From: Branchiostoma floridae
Taxonomy: Eukaryota > Chordata > Leptocardii > Amphioxiformes > Branchiostomatidae
Assembly: GCF_000003815.2 (NCBI RefSeq)
Contig: NC_049987.1
Span: forward strand, 12,957,434 to 13,021,433
DNA: 64,000 nt
Direction: 5' to 3'
The position numbers and the translations under genes are program-made. How positions within the stretch are numbered: the stretch's first letter is position 1; the number at the start of each line of letters is the position of its first letter. Shown here one piece after another: positions 25,901 to 64,000 of the stretch. The notes below the pieces were generated by a model. It ran no database searches, was not told where the DNA came from, and saw only the letters and a list, made by a program, of their open reading frames with translations.

Positions 25901-28900
25901 GAACGATGAAGTTGCAATTACACATAGCCAACAGTGTCTGTGCTCCCTGTAGTGTCTGTAACCCCTATAATATCCATACCCCCTGTAATGTCCTTACTCC
26001 CTGTAGTGTCCGTACCCCCAGTAGTATCCATATCCCCTGCAATGTACGTACCCCCTGTAGTGTCTGTACCCACAGTAGTGTTTGTACATACTGTAGTGAC
26101 CATACCTCCTGCAGGGTCCATACCCCCATGTTAGGTTAATTGCAATACAGTGGAAGCCGCTTAATTGCACACCCAATTTGCCAGCGAATTTCGTGCAATT
26201 ATCCGGCGTGTGCGATAATGCAGAGTTGGTCATTTGGACCGCATCACCACGGGCGGGGGGGCCGAGAGGTGGTATGGGAGGTAGTACATCGCACAGTTTA
26301 TTTACGTGCCACAGTAGTGCTGTACCTGTTGTGCTCCGTACGTCATATACATGTCTTCACGAAACATCGTTCTGCAATGCACTTGAAATCAAAACTAAAA
26401 GTAAGTTACTGTATACGTTATCTAGCTTCCTTATCACGAAACTAAAGCACTGCATGCGCACCGCCGAAGGCGAGTGTTATGTCCGTCTGTAGGCCCCGAG
26501 TCGCTGTGTTGTTTCCGACTGGCTGCCAAGAACATACATTTTGTAAAACCACTGCACCAAGTATTTCCCCGCGACCCTAATTACGTAATTAGACAATGGA
26601 CAGATAGAGAACATTTGTTATTGAGTACTGTATGTCAAAGCAAGTTGTCTGCCAAATCGTAATGCCGGCTTTTGACGACCTTTCAAGCGGGCGGGCGTCT
26701 CTTCATGGTGCTGACCCCACAATATCGCTTTCTTTTGATCCCAATAACAATTTCATACATGTTGTCAGTATAGCGACTTCACAAAGGTCATTATCAGCTT
26801 ATTTGTACCGTGTCTGACGATTTTAACACGCATTTTCAGTCAATTTGCCAACGATGTTTGACAAATTGTCGTGCAATTATCCGGCGTTGGTAATTTTTTG
26901 TTGTGCAGATAAGCGAAGTCACTAACAATGGAATGAATGGGAGACGGTTTGGGATTTAGGGATTCCGTGCAATTATCCGAAGTGTGCGTTTATCCGAGGT
27001 GCAATTAACTGGCCTCCACTGTATTCTGTAAAAAAATGCTCCATAACTGCTACAAATCTGAGTCTGACCACTGTGGCAATTTAAAGAGGGCTCTATCAGA
27101 ACATACTATCTGTAATCTAACTCACATGTCCGGGTGGTGCGGGGAGCTGACGTAGAGGACTGTGGCGACCGCGGCACGCCCGGATGACCGTCTTGTGCCT
27201 GTGGAGGTGGATCTCCGCCTCCAGCTGGTTCCACAGTTTGTCGTGTTCCGCACCCTTCATGTCGCGGCCCAGCAGCTGGATCTGTTGGATTCTGGGAGAA
27301 GAGAAAACATCGGAAGAGTCTCAACGATGTGTTCTGTCTTGATGTTCCAAAAGAATACTCTAGAAGGACAACCTAGAGGGCTAGAGTTGACAGGTCTAAA
27401 CTCAAATCTAATCTTTGAGCTAAAACAGAGACATGTAAGCAGGAAATAACAAACAACTTCTTAAAGCAGTATGTCAGGGATACTAGATGCAACATGTAAT
27501 TGTCTGTAAATTTTATCATCAGTTGCCTTTCAAAATATAGGCCAAAATCTGCGAGATTTTTAACCCCATGGAACTGCCCTCTAGAGGCCTGATGTGGTAC
27601 TGCAACACCTACCTGCCAGCCAGCTCCTTGTCCAGGTACTTTGCAGCCAGTCTGGCACCGTAGACCTCGGACTGTAGAGCGTGGATCTGTTGGCGCAGCT
27701 CTATGTTTTCCTTTCGTAGCTCCTTCACTTCCGCTTCCAGGTTGGCCTCCTTCATGGCATCATTTTTAAACTGTTCCATTTCACTTTCCTGGCAAATCAA
27801 TACAAGTGATTTCACTCTCTATCACACCAAATCTGTTTCAATTAGTTTAAGTAAATGAAGATGAAGTGTGAGAATACAAAAACTCAAAGTGTGAAGTGCT
27901 GTAGGTCATGTCATGATAAAGTCATGTTCCAATAGGGTAAACTAGCCAGAAAAAATGAAGATTTCAGAAGGCTGGCAAGTCTGTATGTAATATTGGTAAA
28001 AGATGACACAGAAAAGGCCCCGTTGATAATCACACCGAGGTCAACTTCAAGTTTATTGTTCTGTAAATTCTTTTATCTTTACAGTAGGAGGGTTAAAGGA
28101 GGTTTTTGCTGTGCTTCAAATTTGTGGAAGAAATGCGAGAACACATATTTAAGTGTTTGCCATCACAAGTCACCACAAAACCTGTAAAAATAAACCACCA
28201 CAAACATTTCAAAATTTACAGTATGACCTTCTTGATGAAATACATCTAATAAATAACCTTACAGGAAGATGTGACCTTCACCTGTTAACCTTTCACCTCA
28301 TTACAACCTAAGGTCACACCCACCAGGCTTGCCAAAAACAGCAGAGCATCTGATTGGTCAGGACGGAGATCACCTGACTTCTTCTGAACCTCCTCCTGAA
28401 TATCATGGAACTGCAAGATCGAAGCAGAAAATTCTGAAGGTCAAAGCGTTGTCCATGTTGATGGGTTTATCCCTTTGACTACCAGCACCAGGAAATTACA
28501 TTTATGGCAAGTAGCCATTCTGTGTACATGACTTGCCAGCCTTGAAAAACCTTCACCAAGATTCTTTGAACAGAGCATCTTACTCTTTAAGGCTCAAGTG
28601 AGAAAAAAAATGACAATTATAAAACTCTAAAAAGAAATTTGAAAGTAATTCAATACACTAAGAGATGTGAACAAAAGAGGGTGAACACCTGGATTCCCCT
28701 ATAGAATCTTGAAATGAAACAGATGATGTCATACTCATCACAAGTAATTGAAAGTGGAAGCTTTAACATGATACACTTATACTATCATAGCACATGTATT
28801 TTACATGGCACTGCATTATTAAAAATGCTTGACAACATTTGAGTGGTCCCGTGGGGACATGCTCCAGTCTGTGGTTCAATCCTCACCAACTTGGCCTTGA

Positions 28901-31900
28901 TGGCATCTGAGTCGACATGGACACCTGACTTGGAGTGCAGCTGCAGCTGTACGGCATGCAGCTGCAGCAGCTGGTTGTGCAGCTCCTTCTCCAGGATAGA
29001 CTTGGTGGCACGGACCTCACACAGGTCTGAGCGCAGGTCCACAAGCTGGGCCTGGAGAAGGGAAAACATCAATCAGAGGGTTAGATTCAATCCCTGTAGA
29101 AAACATGATTGCATAGGAAAGAGGCGCACATGGATTCCAAATTCACTTTAGGGCATAGGTACACAAGAAACATCTTAAGTAAAGATCATAAAACAAAATA
29201 CAGATCATATGATGTAAGCAAAACCTAATAGAAACCTTACGGCCTCTCTTTANNNNNNNNNNNNNNNNNNNNNNNNNNNNNNNNNNNNNNNNNNNNNNNN
29301 NNNNNNNNNNNNNNNNNNNNNNNNNNNNNNNNNNNNNNNNNNNNNNNNNNNNNNNNNNNNNNNNNNNNNNNNNNNNNNNNNNNNNNNNNNNNNNNNNNNN
29401 NNNNNNNNNNNNNNNNNNNNNNNNNNNNNNNNNNNNNNNNNNNNNNNNNNNNNNNNNNNNCGCAGCATATAAATATTGACAGTCTACCAAGCCCGCAAAT
29501 CAATCCTATGGTCTGAAAACAAAGCGCAGTATTTAGTCATTGATTTTGTCGCTGGTCGAGAAATGGCAAAGCTATCAGAACTCATCAATCCTACATAAGA
29601 TTGTCTGTCGGGTCCCCGAACATTCATGATTATTATTGAGCGAGATAGATTTCCCAGCTTGTGCACGGGAGATACCACCAAATCCCTCAGAAATCAATAT
29701 ATACTCAGGGTTTGGAATAACGCACTTATCTGTAAGGCTGGTAATCATGGCTGGGTTTATCGTAATGGCGGTCATGAAAGTGTATCAGGTACTGCATTTT
29801 TTTCCGCGAATGATAATGCCAGTTGGTGCTAAGATGTAATATTCTCATGCGAACTTAATATCTGACTCATTCCATTGCTTCTGTCCTTCTGTACTGTACT
29901 CATACATCATGTCATATCGTGGACATTAAAATGTAAATTCCACATAACTACAATGTAAAAATCCATCAGAAATACACATTGAATCCATACATGGAAATTA
30001 GGGGATGCTTATAAAATTTACCGTGACACAAAAATGTATGCAAACAGAAAGAAATTGCTCCTAACGAAGCATAATTGTTTTTGTTATGACCGATGACTGT
30101 TATATGAATGATTTCTGTGTACAAACATCCCTTTGATAATTATTGGTAAGACATAGAAGAAAGAATTTTCCATATGGCTCCTCTTCTCCTCTGTCAAGAA
30201 CAGAAAAAANNNNNNNNNNNNNNNNNNNNNNNNNNNNNNNNNNNNNNNNNNNNNNNNNNNNNNNNNNNNNNNNNNNNNNNNNNNNNNNNNNNNNNNNNNN
30301 NNNNNNNNNNNNNNNNNNNNNNNNNNNNNNNNNNNNNNNNNNNNNNNNNNNNNNNNNNNNNNNNNNNNNNNNNNNNNNNNNNNNNNNNNNNNNNNNNNNN
30401 NNNNNNNNNNNNNNNNNNNNNNNNNNNNNNNNNNNNNNNNNNNNNNNNNNNNNNNNNNNNNNNNNNNNNNNNNNNNNNNNNNNNNNNNNNNNNNNNNNNN
30501 NNNNNNNNNNNNNNNNNNNNNNNNNNNNNNNNNNNNNNNNNNNNNNNNNNNNNNNNNNNNNNNNNNNNNNNNNNNNNNNNNNNNNNNNNNNNNNNNNNNN
30601 NNNNNNNNNNNNNNNNNNNNNNNNNNNNNNNNNNNNNNNNNNNNNNNNNNNNNNNNNNNNNNNNNNNNNNNNNNNNNNNNNNNNNNNNNNNNNNNNNNNN
30701 NNNNNNNNNNNNNNNNNNNNNNNNNNNNNNNNNNNNNNNNNNNNNNNNNNNNNNNNNNNNNNNNNNNNNNNNNNNNNNNNNNNNNNNNNNNNNNNNNNNN
30801 NNNNNNNNNNNNNNNNNNNNNNNNNNNNNNNNNNNNNNNNNNNNNNNNNNNNNNNNNNNNNNNNNNNNNNNNNNNNNNNNNNNNNNNNNNNNNNNNNNNN
30901 NNNNNNNNNNNNNNNNNNNNNNNNNNNNNNNNNNNNNNNTGCAATTTACTTCATGTTGGGTGACATACAACATTGCCTTTATACCTATAGGTATTGCATT
31001 ATGCACAATTAGATACCACAGCAATATATATGTCCAACACGGTGTGCATAATAGTAATAAAAGACAATGATGAAGGCGCAATTACTAAGTAAGATTCTAC
31101 AAGAATTGGGGCAATCATCCGGCGGTTTTCTGCTATTGGAAAACGAGACTTTATTGGGATGTAATAGAAATCCAATACTGAGTGTTGGGGAAGCTAAGGG
31201 CCGTGGGAATAGGTAATAAGAACTTGGAGTTTAGCTGTGCTTCTGAGGAAATGGTTCGCTAGTGGCCAATTTACCATCTGGATATAAGATGCAGAATTGA
31301 ACCTGTGTGGAGAGCATTTTTCTTTACGCTTTTTTTTTCAATTTATCTTTTTGTCCAATGTACACACAATTATGTATTGACAAAAACAGTTTTTTTTTAC
31401 ATTTTACTTTCTTGAGCACCTTGCTATGACCATTTTTTTTAAATCATCAGAATATTTCACTGTCTTGAGCACCTTCCTTTCCATTTCTACTACTAACCTA
31501 ACAAAACAGTCTTGTTCCTCAAAAACGTGCATAGATGAATAGCCTAATAGCCATTCTAATACTATCCTAATATACTACAAGCCTTCTAATAGACTATTCT
31601 TCTATGAATTTTCTTTTTAATTAAAAGAACGTGGACTGCAAATTACTCAAGCTTTGCTACATGTATAAATACCTTCAGGTGCCTCTTAATTAAGAAGTCC
31701 TTCTGTAGAGGCACCTAAAGGTATTTATACATGTATCGAAGCTGGCATAATCTTTAGTCATGTGCTCCACTTCTCTAATGGCTTAGAATTCACTGGAGTT
31801 GATGTTGCTTCATTCTTTGGACTGACGTCATCTTCTTGTGCGAATCAGTCCGATTGATTATTTCTCGAAACAATTACTACACCCCAACTCGCATCTACTG

Positions 31901-34900
31901 TACATGTCCAGTCATTGATATATCTGAACTTAACAACGCGTAGAAATAGCACAGACAAAGTTAACAACCTTGCCAATGGCTTTTGAATCAANNNNNNNNN
32001 NNNNNNNNNNNNNNNNNNNNNNNNNNNNNNNNNNNNNNNNNNNNNNNNNNNNNNNNNNNNNNNNNNNNNNNNNNNNNNNNNNNNNNNNNNNGATTTAGTC
32101 AGGCTACAAAACAGTACTGTTAAGTAAATACCTTTAATTTTACGTGAGGACAAAATAGAGTTTCGACATAGTTTTTTGCTCCACTAAAAGTAGCGCTATA
32201 GTCACAAGCTGTAAAGTAATGGTAAAAAATATTTGTGGTCATTGTCAAAACTGCGAACATGAAACTCTGAGAGAATTACATGAATTACAGTACCTACGTC
32301 AGAACATGTTAAACTACTAGCACTACCTGACACCAGAGTTGAAAAACTGCTTTCAGTTTTGAGCACATCATACCCTGCTTTTAGCATACTTACACTTACA
32401 TAACCTTCACAGAAACTACAGGATGTAAAACTAAACCTAAGTAGTATAAAAGCTTTCAGTCTAGCTCAGTCATGAGTTTCAAATACTGTATTCATGGTGT
32501 GCTATTTTTAGACACTACCTGTAAGGAAATATGGATTAAGTAGTGACAGTGATGGTTTGTGATTCCTGTCCAATCCCATGTACGGGGTGACCATACACGT
32601 TATGTACACGGATCACTCAAAGTGCCTATTTAGTGCAAATACTGTAATACTTCAAATTTTTGCCACATTTTCATGTTCACAGTTCTTACACTAAGTTACA
32701 GTGACCCCTTCATTGTGAGCTCAAAACCACCAATGTGTCAACTACTGTACACCATGTAACTATAGCACTATCACAAACTCCAAACCACTGTAAACACCCC
32801 ATTTTCTGCTTATCACAAAATTACAATCACTGTGAAGTTAAAGGCATTTACAGTATACTGTAGTAAGACACAAGGCTGGTTACCTTATTAGATATATGGG
32901 AGACCAAATAGCCAATCAATCTCCAACCCTACATATTTAGAAATTTAATTACGACAGTTGATTATTTCCGCCATGAGGGAAATCTTGCTGGATTCTGAAA
33001 GCTCTATAATCCTTCAACAATTGGATTCAAATCTGTATTCTAAAAACATACCAAAACCAGACTGTCTGTTCTATTAACAGTTTTTGCTTTTAAGTCATCT
33101 GGATAATTCTCTCTGAAATTTGACAAGAATGCGCCTGTTCTTATTTGGCAGAGTCAATTACAAATTTGAAAGGTTCTGGAATGAGAACCAAATTGGTATT
33201 GCTCTATTTTAGCAAAGTATGTTTTCAAAGACTAGATGCATATGTCCATATTAATAATACACAAGAATAAGTAGTTGAGAGTCTTCGTTCAAAATACCCC
33301 ATGTGGCAGTAAAGGAGAGTGAATGCAAGTGAAGGTAATGTTAATGTGTTCTGTGAAGGTTGCCCCTCCCATGACAAGACTTTCCACTTACCAAGTTACA
33401 TACTAGAGCCCTCTGGGCCTACAGCAATCATACTGCACCAACCTTTATGATAAAAGGCTGCAGCTGTAAGATTGCTCAAGGTGCAATGAAGTGCTTATCA
33501 GACGTCAGAAAAGGAGAACGTTTTAACCTTGTCCGATGTCTCCTAACATCTTCATTCAGTTTTACTTTTAGCTATAGCACTTTCTATGTTGTGTCCAAAT
33601 GTTTTACCCATGATATTAAATTGGCAAGATTTTCAGGGATTCATATGATCAGTCTTTTGGGATAACATTGCCAAAAAAATGCCAATATCAAAACACCAGT
33701 TACTCTCCACCTATTAACCTTGTCACTGCTGCATATCCCATAACCAACACAAATGTGGTGCCAAAATGTTACCTTAGCAGAGGCAAGGTTAAATGTTATG
33801 TAACTGTAACAACTTAATTGTGGTGAGCATCTCTACCAAGTTTCTCAGGACATTTATCTGAAGTACAGTACTAAATGGTTCATACTTCTTAAAATTTTAT
33901 GTCATGATAAATGCAACCGAATGTAAAACACTTAACAGCAGAGTACAAAGCCAAGAGCTTTATCATCGTCTGCCAGTTTCTGTCTATTCTATCAGAAACA
34001 CACTCATTCATCACATAACACATAACAGTGCACACGTACATGTATAAATTACCATAATAGTTAATACAGAAGATCTCTGTCTGCGATTGCCAGCCGGTCG
34101 ACAAAAATCAAAAAGCCATAAGGCACTTAATGGTCGCTTAATCAGGCTTAGATTGTATCTGGAGGTATGCCTGGCATAATGGATTTGTAATATCTTATTT
34201 TATCCACAAAAACATGAACATAAGGCTTTCAACTTTCTGACAGGTGAATACTCAATCTGACTAAATGAATAATCATGCTTTTGGTCAATTCATGGTTATT
34301 GAAGATGTGTTTGTCCCGAAATACTCGATAAAAATATTAAATAGGTGTACAAAATCACAACTACAGTCTATGTGCTGTGTAGGTGGATTGTGCATAGTGC
34401 TTTGAATAAGCAACATTTGATATTTTAAAGATTTTATTAACTTTAATTTCTCCAGATAATTGCAAAGCAGTGATACACACAAGAAGGAAAGATGAGACAC
34501 AGGTGCAGCCCTGTTCCTGGCACCTGCTGTTACAGGTGTGCACACCTGGAAGGGCTGTAAATTTACACCTGTACCGTAGTAATATTTCGAAGATCATCAC
34601 ATCCATTTTTTTCAATTACAGCTGTGTTTGTTGTAGATGATATGGAAAATAACACAACGAAATATCACTGTTGCATTTTCATATTTCACAAAATTTTGAC
34701 CATTTCATATCCAGTATGCCACATCGCTTGCTTGAATGTCAATCAAGCACGTCCGTCCTATACAAACAGCCTATGGTCATGTACTATGATTTGCTTATCT
34801 ATCTGTTGTGGTATATTTTTGTACGAAGATCATTAGAAAAGCTCCCTTCGTTGAGGATATAATTCGTGAGGACATCGCTCCCTGCCCACGGTACTTGTCC

Positions 34901-35344
34901 GTGCTACAGCTGAGAATGGTCAAGACACCTCAAAAATATCATCATAAATTATCATAAAATCTTCGACGATCGCGATCGGTGTTATTAGTGTATGCGTGTA
35001 ATTATTTCCAGAATCGTTCACTTCACACAAACGTGTTTAACTGTCGATAAGAAAAACGAGCACAGGGTTGGTGCGAGCTGCACCGGCCCACGACAAAACG
35101 GAGACCAAATCTGAAGGACTAGACTAACCTCAAGTTTGGCGTTGACTTGGAAGATTGTCTGCGCCTTGTGGCACAGCTGGGCGAAGGCCGAGCTCAATGC
35201 CGTCATCTTCTGCCGCCCCTCGAAGGTTAGCTCGCACTGGTCCGGGTCCACCTCGCCCAGGAGCAGGTCCAGGTCCACGAACGCCTTGTCGAACTCCTTC
35301 TCCAAAAGCTCCAGCCATCGGAACATCGTCGCCGCTGCCGCCAT
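22906..35344 (-). CDS. GOPC: Golgi-associated PDZ and coiled-coil protein (GOPC/PIST/CAL), 8 exons
   Basis: GOPC is a trans-Golgi adaptor: its coiled coil binds Golgi partners (syntaxin-6, TC10, Beclin-1 in mammals) and its PDZ domain binds membrane-protein C termini, steering them between recycling and lysosome. Exons (minus): 35344-35129, 29051-28887, 27788-27613, 27291-27126, 25809-25714, 25525-25361, 24874-24783, 23407-22906. They join in frame to 525 residues. [20 protein letters not shown] is diagnostic near the N terminus. The coiled coil spans about 70-200 ([19 protein letters not shown]). The PDZ domain covers about 256-340, with carboxylate-binding loop GLGI at 267-270 and [14 protein letters not shown]. 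The [10 protein letters not shown] acidic stretch follows, as in mammals. The last exon encodes about 165 Pro/Gln/Thr/Asn-rich residues, longer than the human tail (462 residues total). The start at [10 protein letters not shown] was chosen over an upstream in-frame ATG-like extension. Confidence 0.95.
23562..23661. other. Assembly gap, 100 N
   Basis: A run of exactly 100 N, probably of unknown real length, lies in the last GOPC intron between exons 7 and 8. No flanking duplication is visible. Confidence 0.98.
23820..23895 (+). repeat. Possible SINE remnant with B-box-like T-arm
   Basis: GTGGGTTCTATTCCCAC at 23864-23880 has the 5-7-5 geometry of a tRNA T-arm (stem GTGGG/CCCAC) and a near B-box GGTTCTATTCC. 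No convincing A box or acceptor stem is present. It may be a decayed tRNA-derived retroelement within the GOPC intron. Confidence 0.35.
25937..26125. repeat. 18 bp minisatellite, about ten units
   Basis: Units resemble CCTGTAGTGTCYGTACCC with period 18. Translation in any frame gives a 6-residue periodic peptide, such as VPPVVS on the plus strand, which is an artefact of the period. It lies in the GOPC intron between exons 4 and 5 and ends about 20 bp before the pogo-like element. Confidence 0.8.
26148..27021. mobile_element. Non-autonomous pogo/Tigger-like (Tc1-mariner) element, 874 bp
   Basis: Left terminus CAGTGGAAGCCGCTTAATTG and right terminus, read inverted, CAGTGGAGGCCAGTTAATTG match at most positions. 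Both are flanked by TA target dinucleotides (26146-26147 and 27022-27023). Subterminal repeats CGTGCAATTATCCG occur near both ends, as in pogo/Tigger elements. No intact transposase frame is present, so the element is internally deleted or degenerate. It sits in the GOPC intron between exons 4 and 5. Confidence 0.8.
28060..28224. repeat. Inverted-repeat element with CTGTAAATT termini
   Basis: The left end CTGTAAATTCTTTTATC and the right end CAAAATTTACAGTAT are partly inverted, like the elements at 10814 and 32639. It is non-coding and lies in the GOPC intron between exons 2 and 3. Boundaries are approximate. Confidence 0.35.
29253..29460. other. Assembly gap, 208 N
   Basis: An N run of 208 bases in GOPC intron 1. 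Its non-round size suggests an estimated gap or masked sequence. Confidence 0.98.
30210..30939. other. Assembly gap, 730 N
   Basis: An N run of 730 bases in GOPC intron 1. The GOPC reading frame is unaffected because exons 1 and 2 join in phase 0 without anything from here. Confidence 0.98.
31651..31742. other. Near-perfect 35 bp hairpin in GOPC intron 1
   Basis: Arms 31651-31685 and 31708-31742 are inverted copies with only three mismatches, sharing the core TACATGTATAAATACCTT. The 22 bp loop contains a small AGAAG/CTTCT stem. The 92 bp structure could be a pre-miRNA-sized hairpin or a very young fold-back element. The long perfect AT-rich stem favours the latter slightly. Confidence 0.7.
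31992..32091. other. Assembly gap, 100 N
   Basis: A run of exactly 100 N in GOPC intron 1. The sequence to its right begins GATTTAGTCAGGCTA, a terminus shared with dispersed repeats elsewhere in the window, so the assembly probably broke in a repeat. Confidence 0.98.
32639..32856. repeat. Inverted-repeat element with ATACTGTAA termini
   Basis: The left end ATACTGTAATACTTCAA is matched by the inverted right end ATACTGTAAATGCCTTTAA. The interior is rich in CACTGTAA/TTACAGTG words on both strands. Non-coding, in GOPC intron 1. Probably the same family as the 10814-11027 element. Confidence 0.5.
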
Positions 35345-38271: not shown

Positions 38272-41183
38272 CTAGTACCCCTCCCGGCAGAGGTTGTAGT
38301 CGCCTTTGGTCCAGAAGCAGATCTGCGCGAACTTCAGAGGCGTAATGCGCGTACCCACATTGTAGTCACGTGGTGCACCGTCTTGGTTAACCCACTGATG
38401 ACCTGAGAAAGAAAACAGTAATAATGAATGTAAACCGGCACATTTTTGGCAACGCCTCAAGGGCGATCCAAGTAGTATGGGATTTACATACAAATGCACT
38501 CCCGACAATTCTTCGTTAGTCATATCGTTGGGGCACCGTAAGAGCAAGGCTGTGGCAGAACTTAAGGAATGACACCATTGTCGAGAGGAAAGATAAAAGC
38601 ACATAATTTGACAGAACTGCAGACCTGAAAATACACCGATGATCTTCCGTTCCCATTTCTCAGTTGAGTTGTCCCAGTTCCGGATGTAGATGCCTGCACC
38701 GGAAGTGCCGGGCTGAGCGTCACAATGTTGGTACAGGACGTCGGCTGTGTTCTCCAGGACACTGCAGTACCTATACGAGTCGAAAGACGGTTGTCGTCAG
38801 TATCCAAGCTATAAGGTCAGACTCCGTTAGTCAAATGTTAGTACAACTTTCCTATGGGCATAGACATCGCTGTAACTCGCCGCTGGATTCTACCTTTGCT
38901 AGAGTTTATTTAATGTTTATTTAATGTTTATTTGTTTGCTTGGACATTAATTCGACTGCTTCGAATTCATCACTTGTCCTCACCTGTAAAGCAGCCTGTC
39001 CTCCTGGTCGTTGTCGAATCCCGTAAAGTGGATCCGCCTACCGGGCGCCGTGTTAACTGCAGAGCTGACGCCGATGTCCATGAAAGGCCGATCGGTGGAT
39101 TCCTTCAGCTCTACTACCGCATAGTCGTACCTGTAGGTGTAAAGGTAAAGGGAGGGACATGTTTACGGTTGTTTGATGATGTATTAATATGTTTGTTTGT
39201 TAGGGATTTTAGCACAAAACAAAGACATTGCGATGTCAGCAGTGATATGCTAGTTTTAATGGTCAGATTTGCAACACACACTCCTGTATAAAAATGAAAT
39301 GCATGAACATCCGTGTCCGCCAGGGGAGCTCACTTACTTGACGGCCTCAATTTCCGGATTATCTTCTTCGTCCACCTCACGACGGCTGCGGCTTTTGGTC
39401 TTTCGTTTCTTTGTCTTCGGAGAGTCGGGGCTGGCGGATGGATGGATGGACGCATGGATGGATGGAAGGAAGGACAGAGGCATGCAGGGATGGGGAGAGT
39501 GCGGGAGGGTGGGAGAATGGATGGTAAAATTGCGAAGTTGGCAACGTGGAAGCAACATATAAAGCAATATGGAAGTCCAAGGTTTGGTCCGAGTTGCTAA
39601 GGTCTGTTCCAGCCGGTTATCTCAAGCTGGTAATGGCATATACATGTTCTAGTAAGCTACTAGTTTATGTTTGTGTTAGCCTTTTTTTCAACAAACATAA
39701 AATTTTAGGCTCTACAACAATCATTGCAGCATTGCCGGCCTAAGCGGCTCTGTTGTCGGGATTTTCAGAGTTCACATGAATATATAAATACTAAGTCGTC
39801 TTCCATAAGAAAGCACAATTAGCAAGGACCAAACCCTGGTAAAATGACCAAGACAGCGCGTAGCAAAAACAAGAATAATGCACAATATGTACAGAGTGAA
39901 ACAATGCGTAAAGACAGCGCAACAAGAGACAATGCAGGATGTTGGCGATGCTATAGGGATGAGACATGAATATTAGCAGCAGGGAGATGCAGCAACAACA
40001 TTTACACGAGCACATGACTGTTGGCGGAACAGCATCTATCGTCTGAAAATGACGTCATAACTGAAGGCGTGGGAACTCACATGACGGCCTTTTCCCTGTT
40101 GCGGATCTTCTTCCAGGCGGCGGGAATCTGCGTCTTCTTGGCCTTGATCCATCTCCACTCGGAGTCGCGGTGCACGCGCATAGTCTCGTTATAGGGCTGC
40201 GACACGATGAAGCCGATCTTCATGGACTTTCGTCCCTTTACGTATCTACGTACAGGAAGGGAGGGAGAAGTTGGTACGACTTGCTGCCTTTTGCGAGGAT
40301 ACCAAATCTCAGTGATCAGGCTATGTGTTACTCTCCAAGCAGAGGCCAGGCTCCGGCCGTTTTTGACGTTTTTTTAGTCGTTTTCATCGGGCTTTCTACT
40401 AGTATTTTGTTATGTTTCTTGACGTGCGCCGGCCTAGAAAACCCGATAAAACGACTAACAAAAATGTAAAAAACAAAAATGTAAAAAAAAAAAAAAATAG
40501 CCGGAGCCTGTCCTCTGCCTGGAGAGTAGCTGTGAGTGCGAACCAAGTGCACAGCTAGCCGAGACAACAAACAGAGATGAGAGAATGACGTACCTTTTCC
40601 CGTTGTGTATGCAGTGCGCGGCCGTCAGCACGTGTTTGTCCGAGATGAGGACACCTGTGCATCCCGTAGACAGCTTCACCACCGCGCTGAATGGGAAGTT
40701 CGTCAGGAACTGCTCACCAAGGATGTTAAACCTCGTGTCCACACCGAATATTTGCCGTTTCCTTCTCTTCGTTTTCACGACCATCTCTGCCACCTCTCTC
40801 CGGATCTCTTTCTCCGCTTCGGGTACTTCACTCCAGCTCACCCTGGTGAACACACTGGTCCCGTTCTCAAACAGTGTCTCATACGACAGGTAGTCGTTGA
40901 AGTCGCTGAGAGAGGGTGTGGGGAGGGCCTTCTCGCAGTCTGGTCCACATGACGTGTTATGTTCCTCCTCTACCTCCCCTGAAAAGTCCGTTTCCACAAC
41001 CTCTGAAACATCCTCTGTGACAAGGTCCGGTAGGGGGGCATTCGCCCATGTCCAAGCCCTGAGCTCACGCGGAATGTGTTCTTCTGCTGGTCTGTTCGCG
41101 TCGGTTTTGTGCTCGTTGCAGCATGCCAGATGGACCCACAGGTAGAGCAGCGCAGCTAACCACGGTCTCGGTCTCGGCCACAT
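38272..41183 (-). CDS. PRSS23/PRSS35: Secreted serine protease of the PRSS23/PRSS35 family, 6 exons
   Basis: Trypsin-fold secreted protease, 423 residues (human PRSS23 383, PRSS35 413). Exons (minus): 41183-40594, 40245-40081, 39430-39338, 39130-38984, 38770-38625, 38402-38272, all in phase. A signal peptide (about residues 1-22) is followed by an acidic propeptide and the basic site KTKRRKRQIFG (137-147), matching the family's RRKRQIYG. The catalytic triad reads LTAAHC (H190), YDYAVVEL (D285) and PGTSGAG (S355), so it should be active, like PRSS23 and unlike human PRSS35, which has lost the serine. IGVFSGHQWV spans the last junction. Residues 252-283 (exon 3) are a basic/acidic insertion absent from the mammalian proteins. 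A 5' UTR acceptor is likely at 41238. It is probably the pre-duplication orthologue of both vertebrate genes. Confidence 0.93.
39436..39474. repeat. GGAT-type microsatellite abutting PRSS exon 3
   Basis: Imperfect GGAT/GGAC/GGAA tetranucleotides occur immediately upstream (minus sense) of the exon 3 acceptor at 39430. Read on the minus strand the tract is CCAT-rich and provides the pyrimidine-rich stretch before the splice AG. Confidence 0.75.
40331..40526. mobile_element. MITE with CTCTCCAAGCAGAGG terminal inverted repeats
   Basis: The left end CTCTCCAAGCAGAGGCCAGG and the inverted right end CTCTCCAGGCAGAGGACAGG continue into CTCCGGC, giving about 27 bp inverted repeats. TA flanks both ends (40329-40330, 40527-40528). 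The interior is AT-rich with an A15 tract and no gene. It lies in the first intron of the protease gene. Confidence 0.75.
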
Positions 41184-55625: not shown

Positions 55626-56066
55626 ATGCAGCGGTACTGCACAGTGCTGGTTCGGCGGATCAGGTTTGTATAGTGTGACTTATATGTTTGTATTGTGTGG
55701 CATAGAACTAACCAGGTGCAACCAACGGGACCCAACTAGCCTGGAATCCATCTCTTTTTAGATTCCTGATTCCTAACCAAGTACCCGTATTTGCAACAGG
55801 CTAAATACGGATAGATGTTCAAAAGGCAGAAACAGAAAACCTGAAATTTTCGAGGTAAAATATCAACATAGCAGACATAACACATAACATTTTGAAAGAA
55901 AAGTTGGTCGTTTCTTTGATGACACCAAAGTTGAGATTATATTCCTTTAAGTTTATGTTTGTGTATATGCAGTACCAGCGCCGCCTGTAGGACCGAACAG
56001 AAAACCAAGTCCTTCCATCAGTACCCCCGCGGCGCGGCTTTGCTGCAGGACTCACGGTATTACAAG
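55626..56066 (+). CDS. Malic enzyme, alternative N-terminal exons A (mitochondrial-type), partial gene
   Basis: Two exons, 55626-55663 and 55973-56066, join in frame to 44 residues and end in phase 0 at a GTCAGT donor. The first 20 residues (MQRYCTVLVRRIRSTSAACR) are Arg/Ser-rich and free of acidic residues, as in a mitochondrial presequence. The end, PRGAALLQDSRYYK, resembles the N-terminal RG-x-LL-x-NP-x-x-NK stretch that precedes the AFTLEERQ core of NAD(P)-malic enzymes, which oxidatively decarboxylate malate to pyruvate. The catalytic body is not in the window, so identity rests on this short match, the splice phase and the position next to a PRSS35-type gene, as ME1 is in vertebrates. 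It could instead be an unrelated mitochondrial protein. Confidence 0.6.
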
Positions 56067-56483
56067 GTCAGTGAAGGGAAGACGTTCACTATGTGTACGT
56101 CTACGAACGTAGTTATTACAAGGAGTTTATTACAAGGAGGTTATAACTTCCTTGGTTATTACGGAGCAACCGGCGTTCTAAATGCATACATACCAGTCTC
56201 GCCTAGCAAGCACGTAACTTTTATCTGGTTAGGCAACAGTATTAAATTAACGGCATAGCTTCTGATTATTAAATATGATCCCAAACTTGATTTCCCAAGT
56301 ATTTGCAACGCTTCGCATCTGCTTCCGCATTCCATTACACTTTCACTTTTGCTGTGAAATTTGGCGCGCTGCTCTGTGGTTGGCTGGCGCTCCTGGGTGA
56401 GATAAAAATGGCCGACCAAATTTCGGGGGAGAACCGCAAACATCGACCTTGTTGAAGAATTTGGTAGCTGTTTGAAGGGCACC

Positions 56484-56567
56484 ATGGCTTCCAGAATCTC
56501 ACAGAAGGGACTGATGTTCTTTAGAGCGTCAGGGCACAAAATATTGCGGGATTCTCGGACCAATAAG
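56484..56567 (+). CDS. Malic enzyme, alternative first coding exon B, partial gene
   Basis: A single exon of 28 codons (ATG in an ACCATGG context) ends exactly at a CAATAAG/GTAAGG donor in phase 0. Its last residues, GHKILRDSRTNK, parallel the end of exon set A (LLQDSRYYK) and the PRTNK sequence before GMAF in human ME2. Both units would therefore splice to the same downstream exon. The N terminus (MASRISQKGLMFFRAS) is shorter and less clearly a presequence, so this may give a cytosolic form, though it has no acidic residue either. No downstream exon is visible before 64000. Tandem duplicated genes are the main alternative. Confidence 0.55.
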
Positions 56568-59500
56568 GTAAGGAAAAGGTGCAACAAGCATCTGTAGAGC
56601 TTCGTGGTGTACCGCTATATGCCGGGCCGCGGGGTGACATATTTGTTGACATGCCGGTTAATATTTGATTGTGACCTTCCCCCTCGCTTCGGTCAACGTT
56701 CACGCGCACGCTTTTGTGGATTTTATTTCAGTTTGAACAGTTATCTAGCCCAACCCGTTCAAATCTGGCAAGTTTAGTCAGTTTTAAAAACAGAAATATG
56801 TGGTTTGTCATTTGTCAAGCGTTGAGGTATTTTGGTAACCTCCTTGGTGACACGTTAGGATTTGTTTATGCAGCTTTTAAACATGTCTCAACGCAGGAAA
56901 AGGCTTTTTGCTGAATTGCAGCCAATTGCACAGAGGTAATAGCAATGGTAACTCGTTGCATAGAGAAAATTGATATGCACGGCGTGTAAATGGATTTCAT
57001 GGTCCTGTTGTTTCCGTTACTCGAGGATGTTGGGGTGGGCGGGGCAAGTGACATTACCAGTCCATTTCACCTTGGAGGTTCAAATTAATACGCTATCGTA
57101 ACTCACAAGACCTTAATGGCAAAGAGAGATACCATATAGCATACTTCTCTCATACTTTGATAATGCATATATCAACATCTATAATTTTTCATCCACTCAG
57201 AATTTCATACACAATAAATAACCTCTTAACGATTTGAATATTTGACATTACAATGAATGATGACTTTGCAGTTTTTTACGTTTCGAATCTACTAGTGGTA
57301 AACGATATTGCAGTACCGAGTGCATTGAAGGTTAGCACTGCATAGCAGTAATATTGCAGTACTTAATTTGAACAACAGGGGTCTCTTGTGAATGTTGTAT
57401 CCAGGCCATTGCATGCAGGATATTTAATAGAAATTAGCAGTTGTGAAAATTTCCTCCGGCTATCTGGGCAGCATTACTTCTTTCCTTGTATTAGGATGAT
57501 AAAGTCTACGAGACAAACTAAATAAAAGGAAAATGATTCCTTGCATGTATTATATATTATATATATACCTTTTGGAATGGCTGTTTTTGATCTCCTAGGT
57601 AATAATCCATCTAATTTCTCCACATAAAGGTCAGTCTGTTAGAAATAATTCAATAACAGCATTACTTCTGGATATGATTATTCTGAATAAAGTTACTGCT
57701 TCAGGACACTTTCTTATTACGCACACATGGTCTCACAAAAGATATGATCCCACATGGTTGAGCTTGGCAGGTCATTTGTAGCCACACTACAGTGCTGTAT
57801 GGTAATGCTTCGATGAGTTGTGTCGCCCCTAGCATTGACCTGTGACCTGACCTCTGACCTAGCAGTAATAGACGAGCCTTTGTTTATTCCGACAAACCTG
57901 ATCTGGACAGTGGTGAGATGAAGCAAACTGGCAGCTAGCTGAAAAGGAGGGAAATGTTTGGGTACTGGGATGTCACCATATGTCCTGGTCAGGCCTCATG
58001 ACTTCTGTGTCTAGAAGAGGTAGCTGTTTTTTCCTGGTTCTTTAGGAATATCGCTCTTGAGTTCGTCATGGAGGGAGTAATGTAAGATGTACGGACAGAC
58101 AACAAGAAAACATGTATGGATGCTTCTGATTCCTGAACTCAACTCTAGTTTATTTCAAACGTTCCAACAGTTCGAATGCTGCACCTGCGAACGGGCGGCA
58201 ACGTCGCTGTTGGACGTCGAACGGCCGATCCCTTTCGTAGGTGCAGATGTCAAGCGATCGCAATCTAAGAATGCTACTCCTCCCACAGTCTCTGATGCAA
58301 CACAATGTCACCCATTCTCAGACTTCTACCATCCTACGTGTACACATAGGCAGTGAGACAATGTCTGCTATGAGCATCTTTGAAATAGCTATAAAAAAAC
58401 TTTGCCCTGTAGTTGAGTTAAGCCATGTATATCCATTAAGTTAACAGCATTAATATTCAGCAGAGTTCAGCATCTTCGGTTTGCCATTGAAAAAATAATA
58501 CTCTAAAAAATAGAAATGGAAGCCATGCTGAGAGCAAATCATCTGAAAGTGATGAATGCAGTGAAGTTTTAAAAACAATAAAATATGAACATCGATATTT
58601 CACTTTTCAAAGTACAAGAGTACTTAAGACCCTGTTGTCCAGACTTTATGTTTTTTACATACAGATTGTAAAACTAAGATGAATAGACTTACACCAAGTT
58701 ACATGTAGATAGAATGGACTTACATGTAGTTATTCTATATCTATTGAATGCTTCTGTTTAAAAGTCAAATAGGAAAGTACCACACTCAAACCATGGCATT
58801 AAAACTACATGTTTCACTGATCGCCCAGTGTCAGACACTGTCAGTACAAGGCTTGAATTACTATTTAAAGCCCAGGTCATTTACCCCTGATTCAATCAGG
58901 TCATGGAGTAATTTCTTCTCCATTTCCGCAAGGTTATGTAGAGGTCAGGCAATGTTGATACAAGAAATTACAGGGCTGGTTAACCCAGGGTTATAAATAA
59001 GAAGTGAGGTTAGATGTAGTGTGTCTCCTCCAAACAACACTGGGTTCTGTTCACTGAGGCCTAATCATCATAACTTTGCACTATACAATGTAGTTACAAT
59101 AGACAACTGAACAGTGTTCTCAAGAAACTGGCCATACTGTGGACAGTGATGATCACCAGATGACAGGCTATTTCACTTTAGCCCTACCATCCTATCTTAG
59201 ACAGAACAGCTGCAACCTTAACGTTATCTTAAGACTTGTTCCATTTATTTGTAAATGTCTTCCATAGAGTGAGTTATGGTTGTTTCTGGGGCAGGGTTAT
59301 ACAAGCTTACTTATGTCTTGGGAGATATAGGTCATAGCCATCAGGAAGATGACCTAGTACTATTCAGAATAAACCTTTCAGGTAATGTTAACATGATGTA
59401 ATATAATAGTATGTGAAATCAATTAAATGTTGTTAATGATAATATATGTATGATAAGTAAGAACTTTAGTAAGTGCTTCTATGAGAGTGGCCCAGTGCTA

Positions 59501-62500
59501 GCTTGAAATGAAATGTAATAGAGTCACATACATTTGTACTCTTACAAGATATTGATTAAAGAAAATCAGAAGAGAATCAAAATATATGATCGGTACATGG
59601 TCTATTAAGTAATCAACAGAAGTGGTTGTTAATGCTTATACTTTGGCTGATAGTTTTATAAGAAATCAAAGTGTTCAAGTTATAACACTCACCTTTTGTG
59701 TTCAACTTAAACATCACACTGTCCTGAACTTAAATGTCACACTCTTCAAGTTCAACCAATCAAGAGACAGTGGATTGGAAGTAAAACAGAACAGCACAGA
59801 GAGGACTGAGTCATGTTAGTTGTACCAGGATTGTTCTACCCAGTCTTCTACCTCCAGCCTCTTGGGCATGTGCTTTAACAGTCAGCTATAACACACAATT
59901 TGGGACAGAGATGACCAGGGAGGGTTCACTTTAAATCTAACAGGGTTCTAGAAGAATCTGTTTCATGAAAAAAGTACTGAAAAAAATTCCATTTTTCACT
60001 TTCGAAGTCTTTATTTTCTTGAGTGACTTACACAATTTTTCAACAGTTCTTGAGACAGCCCTGGTCTTTCATATCCATTCTCCAAGAGTTTTAACAGTCT
60101 TAGGTCATTGGCACAGGTCTTCTGACTAAAATCGCACCCCTAGCGGCCGGCCCTACAATTGCTGCCGCCCTAGGAGGGGGTCATTAACCCCAGCCAGCAA
60201 GAAATTGTGTAAACACAGGCTAGCACAGGTCTTGTCTCTGTCAATGTCACTGTTATCAGTGAGCTATGATCTGGTTAATCCAAGGGGTGTACAATATGTC
60301 TGTTATAGGACATGACTTGTCATGCTTCAAACAATCTTTCTAGGTCATTTGTGCACTTCTTGCTGAGGTTACACTTACAGTTATCGGTGATTACAAAGGA
60401 TACATATACATGTACATCATATTAGAGAAGATAACTGTACCAACTTTATCAAACTCCATTGATAACCAACATGGTAATGGTTTAGTCCTTTCAGCTCTAG
60501 ATATGCTACCATATCTAAGAATATTTATATGCCCATGTCACTGTTATCATGTCTTACATGTCTTTATCAGCTGGTTGAATAGGATTGAGAAATAGGGGGC
60601 TTGCTTGGAAATGATGAATAACTTCAATAAGTTGTATAAAACATAGTTTCACATGTACCAGTAGGAACATCAATCTTACCTAATTTTTCTCCTGGATCTA
60701 TATATAACACTTCATTTTATCCACCATCAAAAGACCATATCATGTTAGGATTGCCTCCAGGTAAAAACATTACTGGATGTTCCCTTGAATGTTACCACTT
60801 GTCCAGTTTCACCATTGGGCAGCCTTAAAAATGACCTCTAGTGACCCTGTCACAAAGTGTCTGACCACCTAAGTATGAGATGGACACTGCCTCCTGGGCA
60901 TGCACAAAAACTGGGGTGGTTCTATTTTTGCATTTTTTCACGTTGATCTGGCCACCAAGAATTCATCATCATGTGCATATGTCTTCCTTACAAGATGTAC
61001 ATACTGTTCAGCACTGTGTCAATCACAAATTCCTCTTGGCTCTTAAGGGCGATTTAAGGGTAAAAGCCCCATTTTTGCTCCCACCATGAGATTTAAAACC
61101 ATTGTGAAAGTTTCGTGAATTGCAGTACATATCTGTTTTCTACAGTGTAATACTTGTAACTTATATATAATAGCAATACTAATGATCAAGGTATCTACCT
61201 AAGAGCATCTCTAGCCTGAAATCCAGTCGCTCCATTTTACCTCTGATCAGACTTGAGCATTCATGGGTGGATTTCAGGCTATTTCTTCACTCCTGCATAA
61301 TGTAATAGGAAGACGAATTTGTCGCACTTAAAACAAGTAATAAACTTACTTTATTCACTGTTGTGGCAGGAATGGTCTACTGTTCCTTCTTCATTCCAAA
61401 CTCTTCCAACTGGAAAAACAAACACATTTGGACTGCTTAGATAACATTTCACAACATTTTCTTATGAGTTTCACAGGAAAACATGCTTAAGATTTTTAAG
61501 TCGTAGTTCTTTCTTCTTTTTCAAAGTTTTTGTTTTTGTGTTGCTTCTATCAATGCAGTGACCGTGCCCACACATCTCCTTTCGGAACCCTTTCATATGT
61601 CGCGGCAGTCATGCGATACCTCCAGCCTGCATTCTCTGAGTCGTTAACATCAACGTTGGATAGCCTTTTTGTAAAGCTTTTCAAGTACTGCTGTATCATA
61701 GAGGACACAAGAGAAAAAAACATGAGGATTATGATTATTCAAAGACCCTTCAGGATCCGTACACAGGCCAAGAAATGCATGATTGTCACAATGTGTCTCC
61801 ACCTGCAAGCCAAAGTACCTGCTCCGAGTCCTACAGACAGCAGCTCTTCACAGGGCTGTTTATGTGACTGTGACCTTTGGTATCGCAGTGGGTGGCTGAT
61901 CTACCATGTTCTTAACTACTGTCTGCTCACTAACAACTCAGTCTGCTGCTGTTTCTCACAGACAACAGTTGGTTTCTTTTACTGTAAGTTTTTTTACTGT
62001 TAGTTTACTGTGAGTGTCAGTCTTGAAGTGGGATATATAAAAAGCCTGGCAAATGGTAAAAGTGACTTGCCTCATACTCTTAGACTTGATAGCAGTAGGA
62101 ATGATAGGCGACTTGTGTGTTGCCACCCAGTGGTATTAGGAAATGTACATTTTGGGGCTGAAGTAAATACTGTACAGCAATGTACCTTTGCGGTCATGTT
62201 TTTGGTGCCATTTGTGTGCATATTTGTTTGTGGTTTGTGTGTGGTTTTGTGGACAGCATGACAATCCTTTTTTTCTTGCCTTTCAACATTTCTTCAGTAG
62301 CCTGATTTAATCGCGCTTCTCAGGCCCGTCGTACATTGCCGCGCCTATCCGGGAAGAGGCTACAAGCTCCGGATAGCAGAGTTTGCGTTACACAGACTAT
62401 TTCTTCAGGTGTTCTGACTTTCTCTTGGTTTTCATTTTGCCTAACTGCTATAAGTCATCTCCCATGGACAGTTCTAAACAACCAATTGACATGTACTGTG

Positions 62501-64000
62501 CCTTACACAGCAAGATGGATGAGTGTTGTCACATACCAGTGATTAGGGCAATAAAGAAGGGATAATTGGTACTAACAACTCTGTAATCATGGCCACACAC
62601 CCCAGGACTTTGGGTCTTTTTGTTACATACAGTAGAGAAGAAATGGGACACACAAGTAAACAGCATTTTCCATATAGCCTTGAGTCTACCACAATTGTAC
62701 ATCGTACTACATGTTGAGTGACCCTAGTCAAGTTAAACATAGAGCATTTGTCCTCCTCAGACCTCAGCCATCATGTTTGTCCTCTCTTTTCACAATGTTG
62801 TAGAGTGATTTGAAGCATATTGTGATCTCGCTTTGAATTTCTCCACACTTTTTTTTATATCAAAATAAGAAGGATGTTTGGAAAAATAAGCTGTTAATTT
62901 GTAAACTTTTGTTGACTGGATTTTAAAAAGTTGTAGACAATTGTATCCAAAACAATTAAAACTGAGGCTACATAGTACAGTGGTAGACCCCAATGAGAGC
63001 CTCTGCCTGGTGAGACTTTGATGGATAAGGTCTCACCACAGTGTTTACTGTCACTTACCTGTCACATCAGCACCTCCACAAAACCCATATGACATGCCAC
63101 AACACAGTATACTATTCAACACTCACAATTAGGCCATACCAGACTGTCCCCAGTGATTTGTGTCATTTTCTAATCCTCATTTCATCTACTGAATTTGAAT
63201 TACATTAAGTGTAATCAAATGAAAGACATTCAATTCAAAGACAGGTAGTTCTCTTTCTTGGGTCATTTTCTAATTAGAATCTAATAAAATTGCATTTCTT
63301 AAACAATCACCAGCATAAAGGGCTTAGGAATAGGAAGATGCCAACTGGCAGCCCTCTAATGTAAGAAATGAATTTTATGAATATCAAGTCTTCCTCCTTT
63401 CATAGGAAATACGACAATACTGTAACAGTTCACTGTCCTATGACCTAAAAGGATAAGAGATAACTAATCAACAACCTGTTTTGTTTCAAAACATGTTACC
63501 TGTTGTTCAGATATGTTATCTACAAACTCAAAATAGCTCCAAATGAGACTGAAAGATTACTTTGATCAGCAGGATGGCTGGTATTTGCAGGAATATGGAA
63601 GTGTACATTTGTTTGTGCAGCTTTAATGTGTATTACTTTAATATATGATTTAAGCTCAATCATTTTTCTCCCTCTCTCTTTTGTATTGACTCCAGTATTG
63701 AAAAAAATGAATGAATCAATAAAAGGATGGATGAATGGTCAATGAAACATAAAAACCGAATGAAGAACAGACAAATGAATGAATAAAACCTTGACCCCAA
63801 TGGAAAGGTTAGCTCCTTCCTGGATTGCCATGGAATCCCTCCCACTCACTGTTCCTTCCTTTCCCAGAAGAAAACAGAACAAGCCTGAATCTAGGCCAGG
63901 GTGATCCTCACCAATCCCTCATCATTGATACCAGATAAGGAACACAACTTCAAAGCAGAACTCCCTCCTGGAAGCTGCCCAGATGGGATAAGGCTAGAGA
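56568..64000 (+). other. Probable first intron of the malic enzyme gene
   Basis: No exon encoding the expected AFTLEERQ-type segment was found on the plus strand. A GC-richer patch at 61556-61665 has an acceptor-like CAATGCAG but reads TGA in the required phase. The rest is AT-rich intronic or intergenic DNA with scattered short repeats. Confidence 0.5.
61212..61281. repeat. 70 bp element with perfect 14 bp inverted repeats
   Basis: TAGCCTGAAATCCA at 61212-61225 is exactly inverted at 61268-61281. A related terminus, TAGCCTGGAATCCA, appears at about 55738-55751. This suggests a miniature inverted-repeat family active near the malic enzyme locus. Confidence 0.6.

What the first reader, a model, noticed from the sequence alone, without database searches (positions are those of the whole stretch)
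55626..56567. Two tandem alternative first exon sets for one malic enzyme
Unit A (two exons, presequence-like) and unit B (one exon) both end in phase 0 immediately after related LLQDSRYYK / ILRDSRTNK stretches. Either could splice to the same body exon. One locus could thus make mitochondrial and cytosolic malic enzymes by promoter choice, where vertebrates use separate genes ME1, ME2 and ME3.
Basis: partly seen in the sequence, partly recalled or inferred. Interest (0 to 1): 0.75.

Follow-up and report, generated by a model that had tools for sequence, protein, structure and literature searches.

The report
Malic enzyme with three first exons
The only malic enzyme gene found in this probable lancelet genome carries what look like three alternative first exons in front of one shared enzyme body, so one gene could make several versions that differ only at the end that decides where in the cell the enzyme goes.

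Summary
Units A (55626-55663 + 55973-56066) and B (56484-56567) end in phase 0 at GT donors. A shared phase-0 acceptor lies 16.4 kb past the window (C9:13037833, GMAFTLEERQ...). Thirteen body exons give a complete malic enzyme of 603 aa (A) or 587 aa (B). Two genome-wide searches found no second malic enzyme. A profile scan found a third first exon, C, at C9:13032219-13032323. C, B and A are the top three of 7,347 open phase-0 GT sites in 114 kb; 0 of 12,110 control sites reach A's score, though a narrower profile did not single out A. CpG depletion starts just after B and covers the body, as for one transcription unit. Head-to-head lies a PRSS23/PRSS35-like gene; PRSS23 neighbours human ME3, so this is probably the pre-duplication counterpart of ME1 and ME3. 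The mitochondrial/cytosolic split is not shown: B's leader looks as presequence-like as A's and C's. No transcript data were available. Alternative first exons are a known device.

The parts
55626..55663 (+). Unit A, first piece (A1): ATG and start of the leader, MQRYCTVLVRRI + 2 nt, phase 2; donor GTTTGT
   Evidence: in-frame join with A2; the donor is weak on a consensus score (1.7; the 12 body-exon donors score -0.5 to 7.6)
55973..56066 (+). Unit A, second piece (A2), ending RGAALLQDSRYYK in phase 0; donor GTCAGT
   Evidence: third best of 7,347 sites in the profile scan; joins the shared body in frame
56484..56567 (+). Unit B: complete coding first exon, MASRISQKGLMFFRASGHKILRDSRTNK, phase 0; donor GTAAGG
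   Evidence: second best of 7,347 sites; joins the shared body in frame
56408..56455 (+). Short upstream open reading frame (15 codons) before unit B's ATG, out of frame with it; matters only if the transcript starts upstream of it
   Evidence: read from the sequence
56568..64000 (+). Window part of the long intron between unit B and the shared body exon at C9:13037833; unit C (C9:13032219-13032323, window-equivalent 74786-74890) lies in the same intron beyond the window
   Evidence: gene model; unit C; CpG depletion begins in this stretch
57836..57860 (-). Two DR1-type direct repeats of the nuclear-receptor half-site AGGTCA; possible regulatory element, function not shown
   Evidence: the genomic background of such pairs is higher than the model predicts

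Best explanation
This is the only malic enzyme gene found in the genome (probably Branchiostoma floridae: recalled from assembly size and chromosome number, not named by a tool). It has what look like three alternative first exons: A (two pieces) and B in the window, and C about 18.2 kb downstream of B. Each has its own ATG, its own leader and its own version of the 13-residue segment that precedes the intron, and each ends in phase 0 at a GT donor that can join the same acceptor of the shared 13-exon body. The choice of transcription start would pick the leader, and splicing from that leader's donor to the body would skip the later first exons. The isoforms (A 603 aa, B 587 aa, C 594 aa) would share an identical catalytic body and differ only in the leader, so the likely role is choice of compartment, of promoter, or both. 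Shown by sequence: open frames, splice-site consensus, one body, no second gene found. Inferred: use of each start, and mitochondrial import of A and C. Open: whether B is cytosolic.
For: Complete in-frame gene model with GT-AG introns. Only this gene is matched by PF00390 (3 matches) and by the body protein (13 matches). A, B and C are the three best of 7,347 open phase-0 GT sites, and 0 of 12,110 control sites reach A's score. C's donor AAGGTACAT is the same as that of body exon e7. CpG o/e is 0.69 or more in 15 of 15 bins of 1.5 kb from 12992500 to 13013500 and 0.37 or less in 22 of 25 bins from 13016500 to 13052500, as expected if a methylated gene body runs from just after B to the last exon (amphioxus methylation lies almost wholly in gene bodies: PMC6292497, passages). 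No Pfam domain in the 7 intron ORFs scanned.
Against: No RNA evidence for any junction. A was within background with the vertebrate-only profile, its A1 donor is weak (1.7), and the acceptor before A2 has no strong pyrimidine tract. The region upstream of C is CpG-poor (o/e 0.24), so C lacks the CpG-rich setting of A and B. No second species could be compared. The second malic enzyme domain (PF03949) could not be searched genome-wide.
Confidence: 0.82

Rival explanations
1. All the first exons encode mitochondrial leaders. The alternatives serve tissue- or stage-specific promoters, not compartment choice, and there is no dedicated cytosolic form.
For: B's leader is as basic and amphipathic as A's and C's. 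C. elegans has a single malic enzyme gene, described as carrying a mitochondrial signal (PMC6471790, passages).
Against: B's leader is only 15 residues before the conserved segment, and that segment matches the cytosolic pigeon enzyme best of the 7 sequences compared. The measures used are rough, not a trained predictor.
Confidence: 0.4
2. Only one or two of the three first exons work; the others are vestigial or rarely used.
For: No RNA data. A has a weak A1 donor and stood out only with the broader profile; C has a CpG-poor surrounding.
Against: All three keep an open frame, an ATG, the conserved segment and a phase-0 donor.
Confidence: 0.18
3. A and B belong to different downstream genes, or one of them to a second malic enzyme.
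For: The shared body is about 24 kb from A and B.
Against: No second malic enzyme found; no Pfam domain in the 7 intron ORFs scanned of 28 listed; the CpG-depleted stretch runs on from B to the body.
Confidence: 0.03
4. The units are chance open frames beside splice-like sites.
For: They are short, and A is within background with the narrower profile.
Confidence: 0.02

Closest known systems
Vertebrate malic enzymes ME1 (cytosolic), ME2 and ME3 (mitochondrial)
   Same: Same enzyme family over the whole body; 63.2, 62.8 and 63.3% identical to human ME1, ME2 and ME3. The leader meets the body at the same conserved segment. Head-to-head neighbour of PRSS23/35 type, as PRSS23 near ME3 (PMC8306649, passage).
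   Different: Three vertebrate genes at 6q14.2, 18q21.2 and 11q14.2 (PMC12162812, passage), here one gene with several leaders. Cofactor residues 346/347/362 are Lys/Asp/Lys, unlike ME1 and ME3 (Ser/Lys/Lys) and ME2 (Lys/Tyr/Gln).
Drosophila Men and Men-b; C. elegans men-1
   Same: Invertebrate malic enzymes; C. elegans too has a single gene (PMC6471790, passages).
   Different: Drosophila is described with separate cytosolic (Men) and mitochondrial (Men-b) genes, C. elegans with one gene and a mitochondrial signal (same passages). Whether those genes have alternative first exons was not examined.
Genes that make several isoforms by alternative first exons or surrogate promoters, such as mammalian Gls2 (PMC3367983, search listing and abstract start only)
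   Same: Alternative promoters give transcripts with different starts from one gene.
   Different: Here each first exon also re-encodes a 13-residue segment of the mature enzyme, and there appear to be three.

Membership tests
NAD(P)-dependent malic enzyme family | Both malic enzyme domains (PF00390 and PF03949) over a complete open frame | tested here: met
   262 and 307.7 bits against cut-offs of 23.1 and 23.5; gene model complete to the stop
NAD(P)-dependent malic enzyme family | Catalytic and metal residues (ME2 numbering Y112, R165, K183, E255, D256, D278, D279; the list is recalled) | tested here: met
   all 7 identical in human ME1, ME2, ME3, pigeon and this body
NADP-specific malic enzyme (ME1/ME3 type) | Ser346, Lys347 and Lys362 | tested here: not met
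   Lys346, Asp347, Lys362. Lys362 favours NADP; Asp347 as in the Ascaris NAD enzyme is described as repelling NADP (PMC3183043, passages). Specificity cannot be asserted.
Fumarate-activated ME2 type | Glu59, Arg67 and Arg91 (recalled) | tested here: not met
   Leu59, Arg67, Arg91
Gene with alternative coding first exons | Several first exons, each with an ATG and a donor of the same phase for one acceptor | tested here: met
   (sequence only)
Gene with alternative coding first exons | Transcripts starting at each first exon | not testable with these tools
   no RNA data
Gene with dual (mitochondrial and cytosolic) products | At least one leader with and one without a mitochondrial signal | tested here: inconclusive
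   charge and helical moment make A, B and C all presequence-like; no trained predictor available
Pre-duplication counterpart of ME1 and ME3 | Conserved gene neighbourhood | tested here: met
   PRSS23/35-like gene head-to-head at 41051-38278 (with a recalled PRSS23 probe); ME3 and PRSS23 lie together in human; PRSS35 beside ME1 and the human gene orientations are recalled
Pre-duplication counterpart of ME1 and ME3 | Place in the protein tree | tested here: inconclusive
   best tree puts it outside the vertebrate enzymes with support 58/34; grouping with ME1+ME3 (p-AU 0.35) or with ME2 (p-AU 0.49) is not rejected

The most novel reading that the evidence does not exclude
The chordate ancestor's single malic enzyme locus carried several compartment-setting first exons, as this genome still does. 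The vertebrate genome duplications then split these leaders among separate genes (cytosolic ME1, mitochondrial ME3, perhaps ME2), so that compartment-specific paralogues arose by dividing up existing first exons, not by gaining new targeting signals.
Probability: 0.28. Interest if true: 0.7.

Novelty: new member of a known kind. Interest (0 to 1): 0.48.

Why it matters
A survey of human mitochondrial gene families judged relocation after duplication to be mostly gain of a new location, noting that none of the Drosophila counterparts it looked up was annotated with two locations (PMC2790464, passages; malic enzyme is not named in its main text). A single lancelet locus with several leaders in the ME1/ME3 neighbourhood would, if the leaders differ in destination, be a concrete case of the other route: splitting of old leaders. 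It can be tested with lancelet RNA data and simple tagging. The mixed cofactor residues also make this body a candidate for a state before NAD and NADP preference diverged.

Tried and rejected
Second malic enzyme gene: none found by PF00390 or the body protein. Another gene in the long intron: no Pfam domain in 7 ORFs scanned, of 28 of at least 80 aa listed; the other 21 were not scanned.

C's leader as a relative of the human ME2 presequence: attractive by eye, but outside the conserved 13 residues no better than shuffles (p 0.25). A's leader against ME3's gave p 0.018, one of 9 comparisons and with a recalled, unverified ME3 leader; not used.

A and B as recent tandem duplicates: 18 of 39 bases identical over the last 13 codons, no support beyond the constrained segment.

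Nuclear-receptor elements: 5 perfect half-site pairs in 114 kb against 0.25 on average in 40 simulated sequences, at most 2; but 3 pairs in the 20 control stretches show a higher genomic background, so the excess is modest.

Linkage: MH2 (SMAD) matches lie on C3 and C7 (SMAD4 beside human ME2 is recalled). ANTH matches lie on C11, C13 and C9:25.16-25.18 Mb, 12 Mb away (PICALM/SNAP91 near ME3/ME1 is recalled). Both of little weight.

Papers: ten searches. In those on malic enzyme with alternative first exons, promoters or starts, amphioxus, or one gene for two compartments I saw, by listed title and abstract start, no paper describing this; (ME1, ME2, ME3 and whole genome duplication) found 0 papers; searches list more papers than I opened. 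Opened, passages only: PMC5624297, PMC2790464, PMC6471790, PMC3183043, PMC11292947, PMC6292497, PMC8306649, PMC12162812.

Rows dropped: from the profile, bacterial loci L015 (its stretch before the junction does not match) and L016 (partial), leaving 6 of 8; from the tree, L016 and L017 (partial), leaving 6 of 8.

Full report
Setting. The window is G000:C9:12957434-13021433 in a genome of 513,431,437 bases and 431 contigs; the stretches taken from C1 to C19 lie on contigs of 17-35 Mb. Size and chromosome number fit Branchiostoma floridae, from recall; no tool named the species.

The exons. A1 (55626-55663) joins A2 (55973-56066) in frame; B is 56484-56567. The shared body starts at C9:13037833, acceptor TTCTCAG before GGTATGGCA, in phase 0. 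Thirteen body exons with GT-AG introns lead to a stop at C9:13051903. With A the protein is 603 aa, with B 587 aa. Both Pfam malic enzyme domains match far above cut-off. The best solved relatives are the pigeon enzyme (845.6 bits), human ME3 (812.2), ME1 (810.8) and ME2 (805.1).

One gene. PF00390 gives three matches in the whole genome, all exons of this gene; the body protein gives 13, all in this gene. The tool scores only its best candidates (4 and 12). PF03949 could not be searched genome-wide. The single-copy claim rests on the two answered searches and on the completeness of the assembly.

More than chance, and a third unit. The residues before the junction (RGxxLLxDPxxNK in many relatives) are conserved down to bacteria: 6 of 8 fetched bacterial homologues carry them before GTAFT. 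A profile of these 6 and 4 vertebrate sequences was run over all 7,347 open phase-0 GT sites on both strands of 114 kb. The best three are C (C9:13032323, 23.8), B (23.3) and A (18.0); the fourth scores 12.4. In 20 stretches of 10 kb from elsewhere, 0 of 12,110 sites reach 18 and the best is 12.2. The first, vertebrate-only profile found B (36) and C (35) but left A (18) within the background; A is nearer the bacterial versions. Exon C begins at C9:13032219 and reads MNCLRRIMPLSVINSRCYYVSQRGKQVLLNKNVNK; with the body it makes 594 aa.

One transcription unit. CpG o/e is 0.69 or more in 15 of 15 bins of 1.5 kb from 12992500 to 13013500. In finer bins it drops at about 13014750, apart from one bin of 1.04 at 13015500. 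It is 0.37 or less in 22 of 25 bins from 13016500 to 13052500, and 0.43-0.65 from 13054000 to 13063000 beyond the last exon. In amphioxus nearly all methylation lies in gene bodies and goes with low CpG density (PMC6292497, passages). The simplest reading is a germline transcript that begins at A/B and runs to the malic enzyme's last exon. The three exceptional bins are 0.74 and 0.54 (13033000-13036000) and 0.48 (13046500); the repeat search for the first did not complete. Exon C's own upstream region is CpG-poor (0.24), so C, if used, has a different kind of promoter.

Targeting. The leaders of A, B and C all have net charge +5 in the first 25 residues and maximal helical moments of 0.70, 0.65 and 0.56. 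Of 2,359 open ATG 22-mers from the control stretches, 0.8% match or exceed B on moment, charge and lack of acids together, 1.8% A, 4.7% C, 5.6% human ME2 and 21% human ME1. These are rough measures without a trained predictor. They favour mitochondrial import of A and C, and they do not support calling B cytosolic, though B's leader is short and its conserved segment is nearest the cytosolic pigeon enzyme.

Relation to ME1, ME2 and ME3. The body is about equally close to the three human enzymes (63.2, 62.8 and 63.3%), while ME1 and ME2 are 55.6% identical to each other. The tree does not resolve its place. The neighbourhood helps: upstream, on the opposite strand, five tblastn pieces of a PRSS23/PRSS35-like gene lie at 41051-38278 (E from 1e-37 to 0.004), and beyond it a GOPC-like gene at 35326-24782. 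In human, ME3 and PRSS23 are lost together with FZD4 at 11q14.2 (PMC8306649, passages); ME1 is at 6q14.2 and ME2 at 18q21.2 (PMC12162812, passage); PRSS35 beside ME1 is recalled. This suggests the single pre-duplication counterpart of at least ME1 and ME3. The cofactor residues 346/347/362 are Lys/Asp/Lys, a mixture of the ME2, Ascaris and ME1 types (PMC3183043, passages); NADP preference cannot be asserted.

Regulation, in passing. Two DR1 nuclear-receptor repeats lie in the first intron at 57836-57860 and an IR1 at 54835, upstream of A. Vertebrate malic enzyme is a TR/RXR target and 9-cis-retinoic acid raises a malic enzyme orthologue's expression in Trichoplax (PMC5624297, passages). Controls weaken the statistics.

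Verdict. One locus with several leaders is well supported by sequence; use of each leader and the compartment split are open. The device is known; the interest is a single chordate gene with three apparent leaders in the ME1/ME3 neighbourhood, which makes the origin of compartment-specific malic enzymes testable.

Noticed in passing
window 38278-41051, minus strand: PRSS23/PRSS35-like serine protease gene, head-to-head with the malic enzyme gene (5 tblastn pieces, 28.6-68% identical to a recalled human PRSS23).
   Followed up: partly
window 24782-35326, minus strand: GOPC-like gene (7 tblastn pieces to a recalled human GOPC, 51-82% identical).
   Followed up: no
window 54835, 57836-57860; C9:13024797: Perfect nuclear-receptor half-site pairs: IR1 upstream of unit A, two DR1 in the first intron, another DR1 further on. 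Background in control stretches is higher than simulated.
   Followed up: partly
window 4863-6764, minus strand: 634-codon open frame rich in charged residues with repeats like FVDPIGxRTRxRxR; not identified.
   Followed up: no
C9:13033400-13036100, beyond the window: CpG-richer patches inside the otherwise CpG-depleted gene, just after exon C; perhaps an insertion or an internal regulatory region. The repeat search did not complete.
   Followed up: partly
C9:13054675-13059023, beyond the window, minus strand: Downstream neighbour with an 857-codon open frame; adjoining frames look like a RhoGAP domain by eye, not tested.
   Followed up: no
window 56408-56455: Out-of-frame upstream open reading frame (15 codons) before unit B's ATG (read).
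   Followed up: no
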